DNA from: a bacterium SCSIO 12741
Lineage (GTDB): Bacteria; Bacteroidota; Bacteroidia; Flavobacteriales_G; Salibacteraceae
NCBI GenBank assembly: GCA_024398055.1
Contig: CP073749.1
Location: 4,092,594 to 4,156,593 of the forward strand
DNA: 64,000 bases
Direction of reading: 5' to 3'
Shown here: piece by piece, positions 51,271 to 61,734 of the stretch
How the letters are laid out: every line of letters starts with the position of its first letter
Numbering within the stretch: position 1 is the first letter of the stretch
Translations under genes and position numbers: made by a program
Notes under the pieces: generated by a model
Told to the model about the DNA's origin: nothing
Databases searched by the model: none
What the model saw: the letters and a program-made list of their open reading frames with translations, nothing else

Positions 51271-53238
51271 ATGACCGAAATTGAACAAATACTCGAGCAT
51301 ATAAACCATGGTAGAAACTTCTTGTTAAGCGGTGGTGCCGGTAGCGGAAAAACCTACACCTTGGTTGAAGTGATTAAACGGGTGATTGAACAACATCCAA
51401 GCTGTAAAGTTGCTTGTATGACTTATACCAATGCGGCAGTTAAGGAAATTGAAGAGAGGGTAGATCATAAAAATCTGAACGTAACTACCATTCATGATTT
51501 TCTTTGGGACTGCATCAAGAATTTCCAAAAGGAGTTAAAAATTTGTCTTGTAGAATTAGCCAATAATTCCGAGGTCAAAGCGATAAAGGTTAACGAAGTT
51601 GAAACTGTGCCAGAAGACTATTTTGACAACTTCAACGACCCAGGCAATCCCAACAACAAAATCCAATACAAGGAATATTTGAGAATTTCAAAAGGAATTA
51701 TTTCTCACGATCAAGTAATTGCTTTGAGTGATCGGATGTTTGAGCGATTCCCGAAACTTGGTGATATTGTCAAGGATAAGTTTAAGTTCATTTTTATTGA
51801 TGAATATCAGGATACTCAAAAAGAGGTGGTCAAAATATTTCTCGATCACTTCAAGCTGTCGCCCAAAAGAAATGTTATTGGATTTTTTGGAGACTCTATG
51901 CAGTCAATTTATAACAGAACCGTTGGTGATTTGAATGTATATGTTGGAGAAGAAGAGGATAAAGTTCGGGAAGTAAAAAAGGAGCAGAACCGAAGAAACC
52001 CAAGGCTAATTATTGAGCTCGCAAACAGGCTAAGAACCGATGAATTGACTCAAGTCCCTTCGGGAGATAGGAACGCACCTAACATGGTTGGTGAAAATGT
52101 CAAAGAAGGGGTAATCAAGTTTTTATATTCATCGGATAGTCATCTCGATAATGTCAAGGCTAATTTAGGCTGGGACTTTGAAGATTCAAAAGCAACAAAA
52201 GAATTAAACCTTACTCATAATTTAATAGCGGAAAAAGCAAATTTTCAGAACCTAATCAACATTTATGACAAGGACAGAATTATAGAGTTTGGGAGAAGAA
52301 TTAAAGCGTTCATCAAGGCCAATCCAACTGGCATTGATTATTCAGAAATGAGTTTTGGGGATGTTGTATCATCACTTCAAGATGGTAAATCTGGGAGGGC
52401 GTTAGAACGAGTTTCACCAACAACAAGTATGCAAGTATTTATTAATGAAAATCCGGAACTTTATGATTCTGCACTTCAAATCGATTATAAGGTTTTTTCC
52501 AATATTTATGTTGATAAGGATCAGCTCTTGGATGACAAGAAAAAGGATGAAGAGGATATTAATAAAAAAGGAAGTAAAAGGGATGATCTCATACAGCATT
52601 TATATCGACTTCAAAGTATTCTTTGGCTGTATAAAAGTGGCAACTACAATGAGTTTCTGAGGATCACTGATTATAGGAGTAGATTACGGACCCCGCCGGA
52701 TAAAAGAGAGTTGAAGGATAGAATTGAAAGTCTAAGTAATGTCGAAGGCAAAACAATTGGGCAAGTCCTAAATGAAGCAGATGAAAAGGGTATTTGTGTT
52801 AAAGGAGATAGGTTAATAAGATTTGCAACGGAAAAGAAATACATCTATGACCAGGTTATGTCAGTATCGTATTCCGAATTTCAGGCTCTGTTTGAATATT
52901 TAGAAGGTCGTACGCCATTTTCAACGCAACACAAAACAAAAGGAACCGAATTCGATAATGTTTTGGTTGTTTTAAATAATGGAAATTGGAACGACTACAA
53001 CTTTGAATATCTGCTCGATTCTGAAAATCAGCGCCAACTACTTGTCAATGGTGGATCAACGACAAAATCTAAACTGAATTCTTTTCCAAAAATCCTTGAA
53101 AGGAGTCAGAAAATCTTTTACGTCTGTTGCACTCGTGCAAAAGAGAGATTAGCTGTATATTATCATTCTCCAAGTGAATCAGTAGTGAACAAGGCTAAAG
53201 AATGGTTTGGAGAAGAAAATGTTATAGACTTAAACTAA
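51271..53238 (+). CDS. UvrD/Rep-like superfamily 1 helicase (GajB-like)
   Basis: A 655-residue helicase. Walker A LSGGAGSGKTYT (K27), motif Ia CMTYTNAAVKEI, motif II FIFIDEYQDTQ, motif III GFFGDSMQSIY, and C-terminal motifs in FSTQHKTKGTEFDNVLVV and FYVCCTRAKERL. It lacks long 1B/2B insertions of UvrD, as is usual in the helicase partner of class 2 OLD nucleases, but carries a middle region rich in charged residues (~385-480). In Gabija GajB acts together with GajA on phage DNA; the same is inferred. Gene overlaps nothing but is spaced only 3 nt from the nuclease gene. Confidence 0.85.
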   Translation: MTEIEQILEHINHGRNFLLSGGAGSGKTYTLVEVIKRVIEQHPSCKVACMTYTNAAVKEIEERVDHKNLNVTTIHDFLWDCIKNFQKELKICLVELANNSEVKAIKVNEVETVPEDYFDNFNDPGNPNNKIQYKEYLRISKGIISHDQVIALSDRMFERFPKLGDIVKDKFKFIFIDEYQDTQKEVVKIFLDHFKLSPKRNVIGFFGDSMQSIYNRTVGDLNVYVGEEEDKVREVKKEQNRRNPRLIIELANRLRTDELTQVPSGDRNAPNMVGENVKEGVIKFLYSSDSHLDNVKANLGWDFEDSKATKELNLTHNLIAEKANFQNLINIYDKDRIIEFGRRIKAFIKANPTGIDYSEMSFGDVVSSLQDGKSGRALERVSPTTSMQVFINENPELYDSALQIDYKVFSNIYVDKDQLLDDKKKDEEDINKKGSKRDDLIQHLYRLQSILWLYKSGNYNEFLRITDYRSRLRTPPDKRELKDRIESLSNVEGKTIGQVLNEADEKGICVKGDRLIRFATEKKYIYDQVMSVSYSEFQALFEYLEGRTPFSTQHKTKGTEFDNVLVVLNNGNWNDYNFEYLLDSENQRQLLVNGGSTTKSKLNSFPKILERSQKIFYVCCTRAKERLAVYYHSPSESVVNKAKEWFGEENVIDLN

Positions 53239-55661: not shown

Positions 55662-57431
55662 ATGTCTAAAAGATCCTTTTTACTCACCTTATTCATCCTT
55701 ATCCTAAGCTTTTTTGCCCCCATTATTTTATTCAGCCAAAACATGAGCATCAATGCCAATGGCCAATCCCCAGATCCATCCGCCATGCTGGACATCACCG
55801 CAACTGACAAAGGAATATTGATACCGAGAACCGATACCACCGTGGTCAATGCAGCTCATACAGCAGTTGCAAAAGGTCTGTTGATCTATCAAATTTCAGA
55901 TGAAACCTTTTATTTCTATAACGGCTCTAAATGGATGGGAATCAGCGGAAATGCCAATGACCAACAGAAGGTCGATCAGTTTCAGCTCACCGGTAGTAAC
56001 CTGACTGTCTCGCTCGAAAATGACAACGAAGCACCCAAAAGTGTAGACCTCTCCAGCTTGAATACCGACAATCAGAAAATCGATGCCTTTGCTCTGAGTG
56101 GAAGCAACCTCCAACTGTCGCTTGAGGATGATGCGGAAGCCACCAAATCCGTGGATCTATCCAGTTTGAATTCAGATAACCAGAAGATTGATGTGCTTTC
56201 CCTGAGTGGAACTAACCTCCAACTATCGCTCGAAGACGATGGGGAGAGTACCAAATCGGTCAATCTATCTTCCTTGCAAAACATCAGTCAAATTCGCGAT
56301 ACCGATGGTGATACCCGTATCTATACTGAAAAATCGACCGACGAAGATGTGATCCGGTTTCAGGCAGGTGGTACCGAATACCTCAATCTCTCCAATGGCC
56401 GATTACAGACCAGTAATACCGGGGGATCTGTTTTTTTGGGAGAAGGAGCCGGAGCTCTGGATGACCTGGGCAATAACCGAAATGTATTTATTGGGCACAC
56501 CGCTGGTGCGATCAATACTTCTGGAGGCACTAATGTCGCGATCGGCTTTGAAGCACTTCGGTCCAATATTTCAGGATCCCTAAACATCGCTTTGGGAAGA
56601 GAGGCCGGCGAGACCAATAATGGGGGCAACAACATCTTTATGGGATTCCGGTCCGGACAACTCAATACCAGTGGAGGGCAAAACATCTTTATCGGCTATC
56701 AGGCCGGCCAGCAAAACGCCAATGGCAGTCGTAATATCTTTATTGGATCATTGGCCGGACGATCAGTAGGAGGGAGCAATATGCTCTTCATTGAAAGTTC
56801 CACTTCCGCCTCGAACCCACCTTTGATTTACGGTGAATTCGACAACGATATACTTACCATTAACGGCAACCTTCACGCCACCGGAAAATTCGGGGTAGGA
56901 ACCACCTCCCCAACCACCGAACTGGATGTGAATGGGACAGTTCGCATTCGAGGAGGCTCACCCACAGCCGGAGCCGTTTTGGTAGCCAGCGATGCCAACG
57001 GAAATGCGACCTGGAGCAATCCCTTACCCGATGTAGGATACACCCAAACCACAGGTACCACCGGCTATACCAATGCCGACAATTTTCAGCAGGTTACCAA
57101 TCAAGTAAGCGTAGTCGTCGAATCCGGAGATTTTGTCAAAATAGAAGGCCAGGTCACCGCCCGGCTCACCACCGGTAGCAACGATGACGAATGGGGCCTT
57201 AAAGCGGTTAGGACAGGTTCCTGTGGCTCATCCGATGAAAACCTGATCGAATTCACCCCTTCCGAAGACAACGATAATGACCACAGCAATTTCAGGGTGT
57301 ATAATTACCTCGATTATTATGTGGCCGGGTGTAGTGGGACCATTAACTTTTCACTACAAATGCGTAATACCGGGGACGATGCCTGGGAGGTTCGGGATCG
57401 AACTTTGATTGTTACTGTAGTGCGGCAGTGA
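55662..57431 (+). CDS. Repetitive fibre-like surface protein with YadA-head-like repeats
   Basis: A 589-residue exported protein (signal SFLLTLFILILSFFAPIILFSQ). After an N-terminal domain with ILIPRTDT (a common motif ahead of such repeats in Bacteroidota) come three ~35-residue repeats (LSGSNLQLSLEDDAEATKS) similar to the QTLSLSG repeats of the protein at 30492-33218. Then follow six or seven ~25-residue units of NVFIGHTAGAINTSGG type, resembling YadA-head repeats, then a FGVGTTSPTTELDVNG peptidase-/tail-fibre-like motif and a C-terminal beta domain. No sorting domain. A trimeric stalk or head is inferred. Confidence 0.8.
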   Translation: MSKRSFLLTLFILILSFFAPIILFSQNMSINANGQSPDPSAMLDITATDKGILIPRTDTTVVNAAHTAVAKGLLIYQISDETFYFYNGSKWMGISGNANDQQKVDQFQLTGSNLTVSLENDNEAPKSVDLSSLNTDNQKIDAFALSGSNLQLSLEDDAEATKSVDLSSLNSDNQKIDVLSLSGTNLQLSLEDDGESTKSVNLSSLQNISQIRDTDGDTRIYTEKSTDEDVIRFQAGGTEYLNLSNGRLQTSNTGGSVFLGEGAGALDDLGNNRNVFIGHTAGAINTSGGTNVAIGFEALRSNISGSLNIALGREAGETNNGGNNIFMGFRSGQLNTSGGQNIFIGYQAGQQNANGSRNIFIGSLAGRSVGGSNMLFIESSTSASNPPLIYGEFDNDILTINGNLHATGKFGVGTTSPTTELDVNGTVRIRGGSPTAGAVLVASDANGNATWSNPLPDVGYTQTTGTTGYTNADNFQQVTNQVSVVVESGDFVKIEGQVTARLTTGSNDDEWGLKAVRTGSCGSSDENLIEFTPSEDNDNDHSNFRVYNYLDYYVAGCSGTINFSLQMRNTGDDAWEVRDRTLIVTVVRQ

Positions 57432-57497
57432 ATTCGACTTTTGGGTTGTGTTTTCTTGGCCTTTTTAGTTTCAAAAAGTGTTAAAGTATTTTCTTTT

Positions 57498-57515
57498 TGT
57501 CACATTTATGCGACA
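57498..57515 (+). promoter_or_regulatory. TetR operator 1, upstream of the tetR gene
   Basis: TGTCACATTTATGCGACA is an 18-bp near-palindrome (arms TGTCnCAT/ATGnGACA), 9 bp before the start codon. It matches the second site at 58092. The position implies autorepression by the TetR protein. Confidence 0.72.
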
Positions 57516-57523
57516 TTTGCACC

Positions 57524-58072
57524 ATGAATACGAAAGATAGAATTATTCAAGCTGCTATTGAAGTATTTTCTGCTGATTATTCTGCTACTACCGAAAAAGT
57601 GGCTAATAAGGCAGATGTAAGCAGACGAACTCTATTGCGTTATTTTAAGAATAAGAAGCTACTTGTTTTAGAGGTAGCACATTCTATCATGTCTAACTAC
57701 TACAGCAAGGTAAAAGCAGCACATGCTCAATCAGAAGATTCCCTGGTTCGACTTGAATTAATGTTTTATGGATCAATTGACTGCGGAAATCAATTGAATT
57801 TTTTACGGGCCTTAATAGAGCAAAATGAGATAGAGGACGATGATAGCATTTTTGATGACTTTGGAGATTTGTTTACTATTTTTTCTGAGTTATTTAGCGA
57901 TCTAAAAGAAAGGGGATTGTTGTCTCCCCACGTAACCATTGGTTGGGCTGAATACGCGTTTCACGGGATGTCAGAAGGTGCGGTTATGGCATTAAAGTAC
58001 GGAGCAGTTGCTGAACGTGATTTATATAAGATGGCCTGGAAATCTTATTGGAATAGTATAAAAAAGCATTAG
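57524..58072 (+). CDS. TetR/AcrR-family regulator
   Basis: A 182-residue regulator. The ATG at 57524 (MNTKDRIIQAAIEVF) gives the canonical TetR N-terminus; a longer frame upstream would read through the operator. HTH: ATTEKVANKADVSRRTLLRYF, cited by VANKADVSRRTL. The C-terminal ligand domain is helical, with an acidic EIEDDDSIFDDFGD stretch. Two nearly identical 18-bp palindromes, one before this gene and one before the carbonic anhydrase gene, are the likely operators. The ligand is unknown. Confidence 0.88.
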   Translation: MNTKDRIIQAAIEVFSADYSATTEKVANKADVSRRTLLRYFKNKKLLVLEVAHSIMSNYYSKVKAAHAQSEDSLVRLELMFYGSIDCGNQLNFLRALIEQNEIEDDDSIFDDFGDLFTIFSELFSDLKERGLLSPHVTIGWAEYAFHGMSEGAVMALKYGAVAERDLYKMAWKSYWNSIKKH

Positions 58073-58091
58073 AATTTTTTTTGCCTAAACA

Positions 58092-58109
58092 TGTCACATT
58101 AGCGTGACA
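58092..58109 (+). promoter_or_regulatory. TetR operator 2, upstream of the carbonic anhydrase gene
   Basis: TGTCACATTAGCGTGACA, an 18-bp palindrome (TGTCAC/GTGACA arms), 68 bp before the carbonic anhydrase start. It shares TGTCACATT with operator 1, so the same TetR protein likely controls both. Confidence 0.72.
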
Positions 58110-58177
58110 TTAGACACTTAAAAGAGATGCAAATTGAAGGGAAACGATAAACAAGCACATAAAAAACGATTTAAAAT

Positions 58178-59050
58178 ATGAAAAACATGACAATCTCTCT
58201 AAAGGGTTCAGGCTCAGTTTTACTCGGGGCCTTGATTTTTCTTAACGCATGCGACTCTCCGTCACCTAAACAGGAGCCTAAAGGAATGGAACAGAAAGTT
58301 GAAACACCCCAAAAAGCAGCTCATTCCTCATCTTGGAGTTATGAAGGAGAAACCAGCCCTGAACATTGGAATGAAATTCTGGACCACTCGGAATGTGGCG
58401 GAAGCAGGCAATCGCCAATTAATATCTACACGGAAGAGGTAAGTATCGGAGAATCAGGCCTGGATTTTGACGCCTCTTTTTACAACGAGGAAACAGACAT
58501 TGAATCCATTACCAATAATGGACATACCATTCAATATAATTTCGTTTCTGACAAGAATTATATGGTCTACCAAGGGGATAAATATGTGCTGAAACAATTC
58601 CATTTTCATGCTCCTTCAGAACACACACTTAACGGAGTAAGGTACCCCTTAGAAGTACATATGGTACATCATAATGAGGAAAAGAATGACTTTTTGGTCA
58701 TGGGCTTTTTTGCCGTTCAAGGGAAACCTGATCCTGCCTTTGCATTTTTAGGAAAGTACTTGCCTATTCAGGTAGGGGAGACCAAAGCCATTGATAATGA
58801 TGCTTTCGATTTTAGTCAAGCATACTCGGGAGTTGAGGGAGATGAAAAAGAAACCTTTTATCACTACAAAGGGTCGCTTACCACACCTCCCTGTTCAGAA
58901 AAGGTGAATTGGTTTGTTTCCGGAACCCCGGTTAATGCTTCATTAGAACAGATTAATATGCTTAAAGATCTCATGCCCAAGGATAACTACCGTGGAATTC
59001 AACCCTTGAATGACAGAAAAGTGATTGCCCAGGAGTTTTCGTGGGAATAG
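58178..59050 (+). CDS. Alpha-class carbonic anhydrase, lipoprotein
   Basis: A 290-residue lipoprotein: signal with lipobox LNAC (LIFLNACDSP), then a ~40-residue linker and an alpha-carbonic anhydrase domain. The three zinc ligands are H142 and H144 in QFHFHAPSEH and H161 in EVHMVHH. Proton-shuttle and Thr gate regions are present in NNGHTIQYNF and LTTPPCSE. It should hydrate CO2 to bicarbonate in the periplasm or at the outer-membrane face. An operator for the neighbouring TetR protein lies in the 105-bp spacer, so expression is likely repressed until a signal arrives. Confidence 0.93.
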   Translation: MKNMTISLKGSGSVLLGALIFLNACDSPSPKQEPKGMEQKVETPQKAAHSSSWSYEGETSPEHWNEILDHSECGGSRQSPINIYTEEVSIGESGLDFDASFYNEETDIESITNNGHTIQYNFVSDKNYMVYQGDKYVLKQFHFHAPSEHTLNGVRYPLEVHMVHHNEEKNDFLVMGFFAVQGKPDPAFAFLGKYLPIQVGETKAIDNDAFDFSQAYSGVEGDEKETFYHYKGSLTTPPCSEKVNWFVSGTPVNASLEQINMLKDLMPKDNYRGIQPLNDRKVIAQEFSWE

Positions 59051-59192: not shown

Positions 59193-61289
59193 TCAAAATT
59201 CTGGTCGATACAAGGGTTGGTTTAAGCAGTTCATGGCCTTTCGGGAAGGTTGGGTGAATGTTCCTTCCATCAGGTAGGACAATTCCTTATCGTTCTTGAG
59301 TTTTCTGGCAAATCCGGCCCAAATGGGTAAGGCCGTTTTACTTCCAGCGCCTTCATTAAGGGACTTGAAATGAATCTCGGGGCTATCAGCTCCTACCCAG
59401 GCTCCTGCCGTAATTTGAGGAGTATAGCCAACAAACCAGCCATCGGAATGGTTTTGACTTGTTCCTGTTTTTCCAGCAATTGGACCATTAAGACTATACT
59501 CTGAACGCAAAGCACGAGCCGTTCCCACATTGACAACAGATTCCATCATGTTGGTCATTATGGCGGCTACATTGGGGGTAAAAAGTTCCGTTGCATTTTG
59601 AGCCTGATCCTTGTAGATCACCTCGCCAGTTGCTAATTGAATGTGTGAAAGGTATTTGGTGTGTACCCGTTTACCGTTGTTTGGAAAACAGGTGTAAGCA
59701 TTTACCACATCATACAAACTAATATCAGGAGTGCCCAACGAAATGCTCCCAACTTCCGGAAGGTCGGCCCGGATGCCCATTTGTTTGGCAACGTTTAGTA
59801 CGTCCCGGAGTCCAGCCCGCAACATCACCTGCACCGATATTACATTGAGTGACCAGGTCAGAGCTCCTTTCATGGTATAGGCTCCATGGTATCGATCCGA
59901 TGCATTTCGCGGCTGCCAGTCATGAAACTGCCTGTAGGTCATCTTTTCGTTTTTGAAGTAATTGCAAATGTTTACTCCCTGATCTACGGCGGTGACATAA
60001 ACAAAGGGCTTAAATACAGAACCTACCTGTCGTCTACTTTTTACATGGTCGTATTGCGAATATCCAAAATCCCTGCCGCCTACCCAGGCCAGTACTTCAC
60101 CTGTGTTTTTTATACAGATAAACCCTGACCGTAGTCGAGTTAAATCCGATTTCGCCTTTTGAAGCATTGATTCTTCTACCAAGGTAAGTGGGCGATTATT
60201 TTTCAGTGCCCTTCCTATAGCTTCATATCCTGGATATCGTTTCAATTGAAGCAACTTAATGAGGGTGCTTTTTTCGTCCTCCCATCGCTCTTGCGACCAT
60301 TCCTTGTTGAATAGTACTTGTAAGGTATCCAAGTGATCATTCATTGCCCTTTCGGCATAGTGCTGTATCCGTGAATCGATGGTTGTAAAAATCTTCAATC
60401 CATCAGTGTATGGGTTAAGGTTTAAATAATATTGACTGCCTCCACGGCCAAACATTTCTTTTACCGTTTCAATTATATGCTGAAGAAAGTAAGGGGCAAA
60501 TTTGGATGGACGTTGATCACGGGCAAGGGAAAGATCCGTTTCAGCGGCAAGCGTATACTGTTCATGGGATAAAAACTCCGATTGAACCATGTTTCTGAGG
60601 ACGAGGTTTCGCCTCAATTGGCACTCCATCGGATTACGCAGAGGATCGTATTGAGAAGTCCCTTTAAGCATCCCTACAAGCATCGCCATTTCCTGTATTT
60701 CCAGTTCGGATGGTTTTTTGTTGAAATAATACTCGGCCGCTGTGTAAATTCCAAAGGTATTGTGGCCAAAAGGTACGGTATTAAGGTAGTGCTCGAGAAT
60801 CTCTTCTTTGGAATAGATTCTTTCCATCTTTATGGCTGTGAACCATTCCCGAATCTTATGCAAAATCAACACATCGTAATCGAAGGATTTTCTGGGAGTA
60901 CGGTTCTTAACCAGTTGTTGGGTGATGGTACTTCCTCCACCCGCATGTTTGCCCATCAATAGGGTTTTGACCCCAACGCGCATCAAGCCTATCCAATCGA
61001 CACCCTTGTGCTCATAGAATCGGATGTCCTCCGTAGCGATCAGGCAATGAATAAGGCTATTTGGCACATCTTCAATGGAAATGCATTGGCGGTTTTCCGA
61101 ATAGATTTTACCCAATAAAACATGATCTGCACTGTATATTTCCGATGCCTGAGGAAGGCGAAAACTTTTTATGCTCTCATCTGAGGGAACCTGAAGAAAA
61201 TAGCCATTCCAAAGCAAGGCAATGAGAATCCCGATCAAAATACCGGACCCAAGGAGGAATTTAAGAGCCAATTTGGCGAATCTGGCCAT
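59193..61289 (-). CDS. Class A penicillin-binding protein (PBP1A-type)
   Basis: A 698-residue bifunctional enzyme. The ATG at 61289 starts MARFAKLALKFLLGSGILIG, a membrane anchor; an upstream open frame is not needed. Glycosyltransferase 51 domain: IATEDIRFYEHKGVD, GGGSTITQQLVKN. Transpeptidase: SxxK in QVGSVFKPFVYV, SLN in TWSLNVISVQV, and KTGTSQNHSDGW. It polymerises lipid II and cross-links peptidoglycan in the periplasm. Length matches the family. The gene is convergent with the carbonic anhydrase gene. Confidence 0.93.
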   Translation of the reverse strand: MARFAKLALKFLLGSGILIGILIALLWNGYFLQVPSDESIKSFRLPQASEIYSADHVLLGKIYSENRQCISIEDVPNSLIHCLIATEDIRFYEHKGVDWIGLMRVGVKTLLMGKHAGGGSTITQQLVKNRTPRKSFDYDVLILHKIREWFTAIKMERIYSKEEILEHYLNTVPFGHNTFGIYTAAEYYFNKKPSELEIQEMAMLVGMLKGTSQYDPLRNPMECQLRRNLVLRNMVQSEFLSHEQYTLAAETDLSLARDQRPSKFAPYFLQHIIETVKEMFGRGGSQYYLNLNPYTDGLKIFTTIDSRIQHYAERAMNDHLDTLQVLFNKEWSQERWEDEKSTLIKLLQLKRYPGYEAIGRALKNNRPLTLVEESMLQKAKSDLTRLRSGFICIKNTGEVLAWVGGRDFGYSQYDHVKSRRQVGSVFKPFVYVTAVDQGVNICNYFKNEKMTYRQFHDWQPRNASDRYHGAYTMKGALTWSLNVISVQVMLRAGLRDVLNVAKQMGIRADLPEVGSISLGTPDISLYDVVNAYTCFPNNGKRVHTKYLSHIQLATGEVIYKDQAQNATELFTPNVAAIMTNMMESVVNVGTARALRSEYSLNGPIAGKTGTSQNHSDGWFVGYTPQITAGAWVGADSPEIHFKSLNEGAGSKTALPIWAGFARKLKNDKELSYLMEGTFTQPSRKAMNCLNQPLYRPEF

Positions 61290-61734
61290 TTCTAAACAGT
61301 TGTTCCAAACATAGTGAAATTGAAGGGGTCTGGTGCAATGTGGCCATTCTTGCTTATCGGCAGATATACGGAAATAAGCATCCGCACAGTCGGTCTGGTT
61401 GCCGACGCACAATTACGCTCAAAGACTCGCTTTGACGTCCAAATCAACCACCTGTCCCATAATGGCCTTGCGTTATCCGCCCTTGAGTTCGGACAAGTTG
61501 TAATTTTGCTTAGGTTTTTAACCGTTTCATTCGGTATTCCTGGAATAGGAGGGGAGTTCTCCCCAAACGGTGCCGGGTCAACCGACTGCACTCCGAGTGA
61601 AGCGATCTCTGACTGAAAGGAAGAAACTAAGGGAGCTCACTGCAGGTAATTTAACTATAACGTCCTATTATAGGACAATTAAGGGTTTCTGTATTCGGAG
61701 GTGTCATCTCGGTTCCTTTTGTACGTGCGTGGGC
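61290..61734. other. Intergenic region with an unassigned ORF
   Basis: A 445-bp stretch before repeat R2, with slightly higher GC than the module that follows. A 100-codon plus-strand frame (61314-61616) is open but matches nothing I know and is mirrored by a minus-strand frame, so it may be non-coding or a relic. No RNA gene was recognised. Confidence 0.35.

What the first reader, a model, noticed from the sequence alone, without database searches (positions are those of the whole stretch)
57498..58109. A TetR protein with twin operators controlling an alpha-carbonic anhydrase
Two 18-bp palindromes sharing TGTCACATT stand before the tetR gene and before the carbonic anhydrase lipoprotein gene, and I noticed no other copy in the window. 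This predicts autorepression plus control of surface CO2 hydration by an unknown ligand; I am not aware of a described TetR circuit of this kind.
Basis: partly seen in the sequence, partly recalled or inferred. Interest (0 to 1): 0.55.

Follow-up and report, generated by a model that had tools for sequence, protein, structure and literature searches.

The report
Twin-operator TetR switch for carbonic anhydrase
A bacterial repressor gene and the carbonic anhydrase gene behind it each carry the same DNA switch; related bacteria keep the repressor and its switches but use them to control quite different enzymes, so here a known kind of switch seems to have been given a new gene to control.

Summary
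Two 18-bp palindromes (57498-57515, 58092-58109) stand before tetR (57524-58072) and before an alpha-carbonic anhydrase gene (58178-59050). TetR relatives turn the guess into a footprint: 41 of 43 Bacteroidota loci carry a like site before tetR; all 28 loci whose next gene is a GliT/DepH-like FAD oxidoreductase, and one unassigned, have a second site 16-19 nt after the tetR stop (20 here); of 14 loci with an alpha/beta hydrolase next, none has. A matrix trained only on relatives ranks the two window sites first and second of all window positions (22.0 and 16.8 bits; next 2.7). So op1-tetR-op2-gene is an inherited layout; carbonic anhydrase as its gene was seen in the window alone, and 24 other alpha-CA loci had no TetR nearby. 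Cysteines 51 and 59, present in 42 of 42 aligned relatives, and the histidine cluster of the oxidoreductase type are missing here. Best reading: a local autorepressor that kept its DNA recognition, changed its sensor half, and controls a carbonic anhydrase, released by an unknown ligand. Binding, ligand and CO2 relevance are untested. 'Surface' is not supported: no known lipoprotein export signal follows the lipobox.

The parts
57498..57515 (.). operator 1, TGTCACATTTATGCGACA, ends 8 nt before the tetR ATG
   Evidence: 22.0 bits with a matrix from relatives only, first in the window; like site before tetR in 41 of 43 relatives
57516..57519 (+). TTTG, possible end of a Bacteroidota -7 promoter element, 8 nt before the ATG
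   Evidence: TTTG at the same distance in 11 of 43 relatives, there as part of TAnnTTTG; here the box reads GACATTTG, so the match is partial, and neither intergenic stretch of the window holds an exact TAnnTTTG; promoter consensus recalled
57524..58072 (+). tetR, 182 aa, TetR/AcrR-type repressor with helix-turn-helix at residues 7-51
   Evidence: Pfam TetR_N 2e-9; aligned over its whole length with 42 relatives at 29-36% identity
58092..58109 (.). operator 2, TGTCACATTAGCGTGACA, starts 20 nt after the tetR stop and ends 68 nt before the CA start
   Evidence: 16.8 bits, second in the window; second site 16-19 nt after the tetR stop in 28 of 28 oxidoreductase-type relatives and in L068
58178..59050 (+). 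alpha-carbonic anhydrase, 290 aa, predicted lipoprotein (Cys25), expected zinc ligands His142, His144, His161
   Evidence: Pfam Carb_anhydrase 1.8e-47; best match among solved structures is the bacterial enzyme 4c3t; residue positions, their roles from recalled human CA II numbering

Best explanation
The tetR product is a local repressor that binds, as a dimer, operator 1 at its own promoter and operator 2 at the carbonic anhydrase promoter, keeping both genes low; an unknown small ligand (or reactive compound) loosens it, so that regulator and enzyme rise together. The layout op1-tetR-op2-gene is shared with a TetR lineage of Bacteroidota in which op2 stands before a GliT/DepH-like FAD oxidoreductase; in this genome the gene behind op2 is an alpha-carbonic anhydrase and the sensor half of the repressor has diverged. 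Shown: the sites, their presence and spacing in relatives, the gene identities, the loss of two otherwise invariant cysteines and of a histidine cluster. Inferred: binding, repression, release by a ligand, and that the enzyme works on CO2/bicarbonate in the periplasm.
For: Site with >=8 of 10 core bases before tetR in 41 of 43 relatives; second site in 28 of 28 oxidoreductase-type loci plus the one unassigned locus, against 0 of 14 hydrolase-type loci; same threshold in controls: 0 of 43 mid-gene stretches, 29 of 2150 shuffled upstream stretches. Of 14 other TetR genes, 0 reach 9 core bases and 2 reach 8. A matrix from relatives alone puts the two window sites first and second, 14 bits above the third. 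Op2 starts 20 nt after the tetR stop, against 16-19 nt in the 29 loci. The first 50 residues are on average 51% identical to relatives, the rest 24%, in line with kept DNA recognition and changed sensing, though this half is generally the better conserved one in TetR proteins (recalled). No terminator-like structure at op2. Zinc histidines of the CA present.
Against: No binding data. The window TetR is a long, isolated branch (2.99 changes per column) with at most 36% identity to any relative, so its place in the lineage is unsure; by path its nearest rows are hydrolase-type, whereas its two-operator layout is oxidoreductase-type. Operator 2 has C at position 12, seen in 1 of 41 sites before tetR and 0 of 29 sites after it. 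No exact TAnnTTTG box is in either intergenic stretch. The pair tetR-CA was found in one genome only. The core used to pick sites in relatives was first seen in the window, so its columns are not independent; the controls, and columns 7 and 12 (A in 41 of 41, T in 40 of 41 before tetR), which were not selected on, answer this in part.
Confidence: 0.82

Rival explanations
1. The TetR represses only itself; operator 2 is a leftover of an ancestral op1-tetR-op2-oxidoreductase layout, and the carbonic anhydrase that came to lie behind it has its own promoter further down and is not controlled.
For: The next gene differs from that of all 42 relatives with an assigned next gene; op2 scores lower than op1 (16.8 against 22.0 bits); 68 nt separate op2 from the CA start, room for another promoter.
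Against: Op2 is still palindromic at 7 of 9 pairs although the sensor half of the protein is down to 24% identity; TTTG at 58080-58083 upstream of op2 could be a -33 element, which would place op2 inside the promoter (consensus recalled).
Confidence: 0.12
2. The TetR has a wider regulon and CA is only one target; a third palindrome in the genome (AGTCACATTTATGTGACA) lies upstream of a sensor kinase gene.
For: The third site scores 16.9 bits, as high as op2, and lies in the gap 233 nt before a propeller/Y_Y_Y/histidine kinase gene.
Against: 2 of 2,999,983 random 18-mers score 16.75 or more, so about three are expected in 5.1 Mb; the site lies 8 nt after a stop codon and far from the next start; exact matches to TGTCRCN6GYGACA exist only at the tetR locus.
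Confidence: 0.1
3. The palindromes belong to a different regulator of the genome and only happen to flank tetR.
For: Palindromes of the TGTC...GACA type could in principle serve other dimeric regulators.
Against: Like sites accompany this TetR lineage in several families of the phylum, while 14 other TetR genes and 24 other CA loci have none with 9 or more core bases.
Confidence: 0.03

Closest known systems
NemR / AltR type thiol-sensing TetR repressors (Escherichia coli nemR-nemA; Pantoea ananatis alt cluster)
   Same: Autorepression through an inverted repeat and control of nearby enzyme genes; further operator copies in the alt cluster (PMC13178969, passages).
   Different: The AltR box is CAATCTAC-N6-GTAGATTG, unlike this operator. 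The window TetR lacks the two cysteines that all 42 aligned relatives share, and its neighbour is a carbonic anhydrase. No direct sequence comparison with NemR or AltR was made.
DitR of Stenotrophomonas maltophilia (diamide-responsive TetR)
   Same: TetR repressor with several binding boxes at its target promoter, one between -35 and -10 (PMC9342713, passages).
   Different: Controls transporter genes and senses oxidation through two cysteines; no sequence relation was tested.
Unnamed Bacteroidota tetR - GliT/DepH-like oxidoreductase layout (28 loci here: L034, L049, L051-L067, L069, L072-L079)
   Same: Same operator core TGTC(A/T)CA-N4-TGAGACA; a site with >=8 core bases before tetR in 27 of 28 loci and after it in 28 of 28, with nearly the same spacing after the tetR stop.
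   Different: Next gene is a FAD oxidoreductase (for L051 the nearest solved structures are 3fbs, DepH and others, GliT sixth). The TetR has Cys51 and Cys59 and at least three His in the loop around residues 97-108 in 28 of 28; the window protein has none of these.
Helicobacter pylori alpha-carbonic anhydrase control by the acid-responsive ArsRS system (recalled)
   Same: An alpha-carbonic anhydrase under dedicated transcriptional control.
   Different: Two-component system, not TetR; only the listing of PMC4464171 was seen here.

Membership tests
TetR/AcrR family of repressors | N-terminal TetR_N helix-turn-helix above the curated cut-off | tested here: met
   37.5 bits against a cut-off of 24
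TetR/AcrR family of repressors | Dimeric, all-helical ligand-binding half | not tested
   No structure was predicted; the sequence aligns over its full length with TetR relatives
TetR/AcrR family of repressors | Palindromic operator at the tetR promoter | tested here: met
   Operator 1, and a like site in 41 of 43 relatives; sequence evidence, no binding data
Bacteroidota two-operator tetR-oxidoreductase layout | Second operator shortly (16-19 nt) after the tetR stop | tested here: met
   20 nt in the window; 16-19 nt in 28 of 28 oxidoreductase-type loci and in L068
Bacteroidota two-operator tetR-oxidoreductase layout | FAD oxidoreductase as the next gene | tested here: not met
   Next gene is Carb_anhydrase
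Bacteroidota two-operator tetR-oxidoreductase layout | Cysteines at positions 51 and 59 | tested here: not met
   Val51 and Tyr59 in the window; Cys in 42 of 42 relatives at both
Bacteroidota two-operator tetR-oxidoreductase layout | Histidine cluster around residues 97-108 | tested here: not met
   No His in the window stretch; at least three in 28 of 28 oxidoreductase-type and in L068, 0 of 13 hydrolase-type
alpha-carbonic anhydrases | Carb_anhydrase domain with three zinc-binding histidines | tested here: met
   162.5 bits; His142, His144, His161 (roles by recalled numbering)
alpha-carbonic anhydrases | CO2 hydration activity | not testable with these tools
   needs an enzyme assay
NemR-type electrophile sensors | Sensing cysteine(s) required for release | tested here: inconclusive
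   Of three positions looked at only Cys87 is kept in the window TetR; it is Cys in 33 of 42 relatives and Val in 9
Bacteroidetes surface lipoproteins | Lipoprotein export signal just after the lipidated cysteine | tested here: not met
   CDSPSPKQ matches none of K-(D/E)2, Q-A-(D/E)2, SDDDD, SDDFE (PMC5080379, passages); judged by eye

The most novel reading that the evidence does not exclude
The sensor half of this TetR has been remade to read a signal of inorganic carbon or pH (CO2, bicarbonate or a metabolite that follows them), a kind of TetR regulator I do not know of, evolved by keeping the operators and swapping both sensor and controlled gene.
Probability: 0.08. Interest if true: 0.75.

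Novelty: new variant of a known kind. Interest (0 to 1): 0.4.

Why it matters
It looks like a natural case of a regulatory layout in which the DNA-reading part and the operators were kept while the controlled gene, and apparently the sensor, were replaced. It offers a ready pair of operators and a question that can be tested at once: what does a TetR sense when its neighbour is a carbonic anhydrase? It also points to a repressor-oxidoreductase layout, seen here in 28 loci of Bacteroidota, whose repressor has two invariant cysteines and a histidine cluster that invite a test for thiol or metal sensing.

Tried and rejected
Orthologous tetR-CA pairs: none seen. In the 99 related genomes no TetR relative matched beyond residues 1-105, and the five clear CA relatives there are not beside a TetR. 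None of the 43 loci of TetR relatives has a CA match behind tetR within the fetched stretch. Of 24 other alpha-CA loci (23 distinct genes, since L097 and L099 are one broken gene) none had a TetR among reading frames of at least 80 codons, sought with a profile of the helix-turn-helix half that does find unrelated TetRs, within 1.5 kb (2.5 kb upstream for the three plasmid loci), and none had a site with 9 or more of 10 core bases. Of 194 plasmid records with an alpha-CA match only three were looked at; the weak hit L032 was left out.

A wider regulon: the genome has 38 places with at most one mismatch to TGTCNCN6GNGACA, fewer than the 46 of the reversed control pattern, so no wider regulon can be claimed; the place at 1937880 stays a lead.

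Terminator reading of operator 2: no terminator-like structure at either palindrome. The Chroococcidiopsis plasmid hit (L036) is a TetR before efflux genes and has no site with 9 core bases. The genome-collection scan with the single protein gave one partial archaeal hit.

Rows dropped: three relatives with split or truncated tetR (L080-L082) were fetched but not analysed; L050, whose tetR has a broken start, was kept in the operator counts as a miss but left out of the alignment and tree; L035 and L041 have identical TetRs and both count in the 43.

Full report
What is there. The window belongs to a single-contig genome of 5,103,034 bases. A tetR gene (57524-58072, 182 aa; TetR_N 2e-9) is followed on the same strand by an alpha-carbonic anhydrase gene (58178-59050, 290 aa; Carb_anhydrase 1.8e-47). 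The next gene (59193-61412) is a penicillin-binding protein on the other strand, so the pair appears to stand alone. Palindromes TGTCACATTTATGCGACA (57498-57515) and TGTCACATTAGCGTGACA (58092-58109) lie 8 nt before the tetR ATG and 20 nt after the tetR stop, the latter 68 nt before the CA ATG. Each has 7 of 9 pairs complementary.

Chance. The exact pattern TGTCRCN6GYGACA occurs at these two places only in the genome. With one mismatch allowed the genome has 38 places for the wider pattern TGTCNCN6GNGACA, fewer than the 46 of a reversed control, so single near-matches elsewhere mean little. The repeat finder gives these two as the longest direct repeat of 57430-58180.

Relatives of the TetR. 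The protein is rare: besides the window, a match at E <= 1e-8 (single protein) or 1e-12 (profile) was found in 2 of the 394 other phylum genomes searched. Of 99 near relatives 12 had weak matches, all within the first 105 residues. Two plasmids, of Hymenobacter and Spirosoma, carry full-length relatives; a third hit, in Chroococcidiopsis, is more distant. The family of one genome hit gave 40 of 222 genomes, the genus of the other 2 of 199, hits included. This gave 43 loci for study, 41 from genomes and 2 from plasmids; three further split or truncated genes were left out.

Operators in relatives. In 41 of 43 loci the 100 nt before tetR hold a site with at least 8 of 10 core bases; the misses are L049 and the broken L050. 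By the next gene the loci fall into two types. In 28 it is a FAD oxidoreductase (by BLAST to that of L051, which is Pyr_redox_2, with 3fbs, DepH and, sixth, GliT among the nearest solved structures), and 28 of 28 have a second site after tetR; L068 has the site too but its next gene was not assigned. In 14 it is an alpha/beta hydrolase (by BLAST to that of L039, Abhydrolase_1), and 0 of 14 have a second site. Controls at the same threshold: 0 of 43 mid-gene stretches and 29 of 2150 shuffled upstream stretches. Of 14 other TetR genes, 2 reach 8 core bases upstream (in a longer stretch of 191 nt) and none 9; none reaches more than 6 downstream. The second site starts 16-19 nt after the tetR stop in the 29 loci; in the window it starts at 20. 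The consensus is TGTC(A/T)CA-N4-TGAGACA; columns 7 and 12, on which no selection was made, are A in 41 of 41 and T in 40 of 41 sites before tetR.

Independent scoring. A palindromic matrix built from 48 distinct sites of relatives, none from the window, gives the window's two sites 22.0 and 16.8 bits; the third-best position in the 64 kb has 2.7. Training sites run from 12.7 to 28.3. Of 2,999,983 random 18-mers with the window's dinucleotide make-up, 2 reach 16.75 bits (all). One caution: the core used to pick sites in relatives was first seen in the window.

The protein. The window TetR is on average 51% identical to relatives over residues 1-50 and 24% over the rest. On the tree it is a long single branch, 2.99 changes per column, whose place is unsure; oxidoreductase-type and hydrolase-type relatives separate by one change of label, and by path the window lies nearest to hydrolase-type rows. 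Cysteines 51 and 59 are present in 42 of 42 relatives and are Val and Tyr here; Cys87 is kept, as in 33 of 42. The oxidoreductase-type repressors have three to five His in the stretch around residues 97-108 (28 of 28, and L068), the hydrolase-type ones at most one (13 of 13), the window none. So the DNA-reading half is kept while the sensing half has lost the marks of its relatives.

The target. The CA has the expected zinc histidines (142, 144, 161), His116 at the proton-shuttle position, Thr235/Thr236, and Cys73 and Cys239, which pair in related bacterial enzymes (positions; roles and pairing recalled; alignment with 4c3t). It has a lipobox (LNAC, Cys25), but what follows matches none of the export signals given for Bacteroidetes surface lipoproteins (PMC5080379, passages). 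Alpha-CAs are scattered in the phylum (15 of 395 genomes, this one included), and in 24 other CA loci no TetR and no operator with 9 core bases was found nearby. The simplest reading is that the gene behind the second operator was exchanged and the switch kept.

Mechanism. TetR proteins bind palindromes as dimers and leave them on binding a ligand or on modification of cysteines (family knowledge; AltR with NemR, and DitR, as examples: PMC13178969 and PMC9342713, passages). Operator 1 ends 8 nt before the ATG, with TTTG at -8 as in 11 relatives, where it ends a TAnnTTTG box; 34 of 43 relatives have such a box within 40 nt of the start, but neither intergenic stretch of the window has an exact one. 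A repressor there would block RNA polymerase. TTTG at 58080-58083 upstream of operator 2 could make the same arrangement for CA (promoter consensus recalled; inference). The expected result is low, tied expression of TetR and CA, released by a ligand that is unknown and need not be that of the relatives.

Literature. Four searches for TetR with carbonic anhydrase (2, 6, 26 and 1 papers, of the 26 only 20 listed) showed no title or abstract start on such a circuit; none of those papers was opened for it. A search for TetR operators in Bacteroidetes with oxidoreductases (5 papers) showed none on the two-operator layout. The library lacks most subscription papers, so this is not proof.

Verdict. 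The kind of circuit is familiar: a TetR that represses itself and its neighbour. Apparently new are the target, the loss of the lineage's shared cysteines and histidines, and the recognition of the two-operator layout itself. Interest 0.4.

Noticed in passing
L034, L049, L051-L067, L069, L072-L079: Recurrent op1-tetR-op2-oxidoreductase layout in Bacteroidota; the enzyme of L051 resembles DepH and GliT, and the TetR has Cys51, Cys59 and a histidine cluster. May be a thiol- or metal-responsive switch.
   Followed up: partly
L034:4622-6677: On the Hymenobacter plasmid the oxidoreductase is followed by an old-yellow-enzyme type alkene reductase (Oxidored_FMN), which hints at electrophile stress.
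   Followed up: partly
L005:2881-2898 (G000:C1:1937880-1937897): Palindrome AGTCACATTTATGTGACA (minus-strand reading), 16.9 bits, 8 nt after the stop codon of a Polyketide_cyc2 gene and 233 nt before a propeller/Y_Y_Y histidine kinase gene; chance cannot be excluded.
   Followed up: partly
window 55662-57431: 589-aa protein without a Pfam match at E 0.001, with near copies of a repeat around LSGSNLQLSLEDD..KSVDLSSLN.
   Followed up: no
window 51271-53238: 655-aa ORF that reads like a UvrD/Rep-type helicase (by eye), with low G+C (0.362 against 0.433 for the window).
   Followed up: no
G396:C10:194473-195094 (L097, L099): An alpha-carbonic anhydrase gene that carries stop codons in another Bacteroidota genome.
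   Followed up: no
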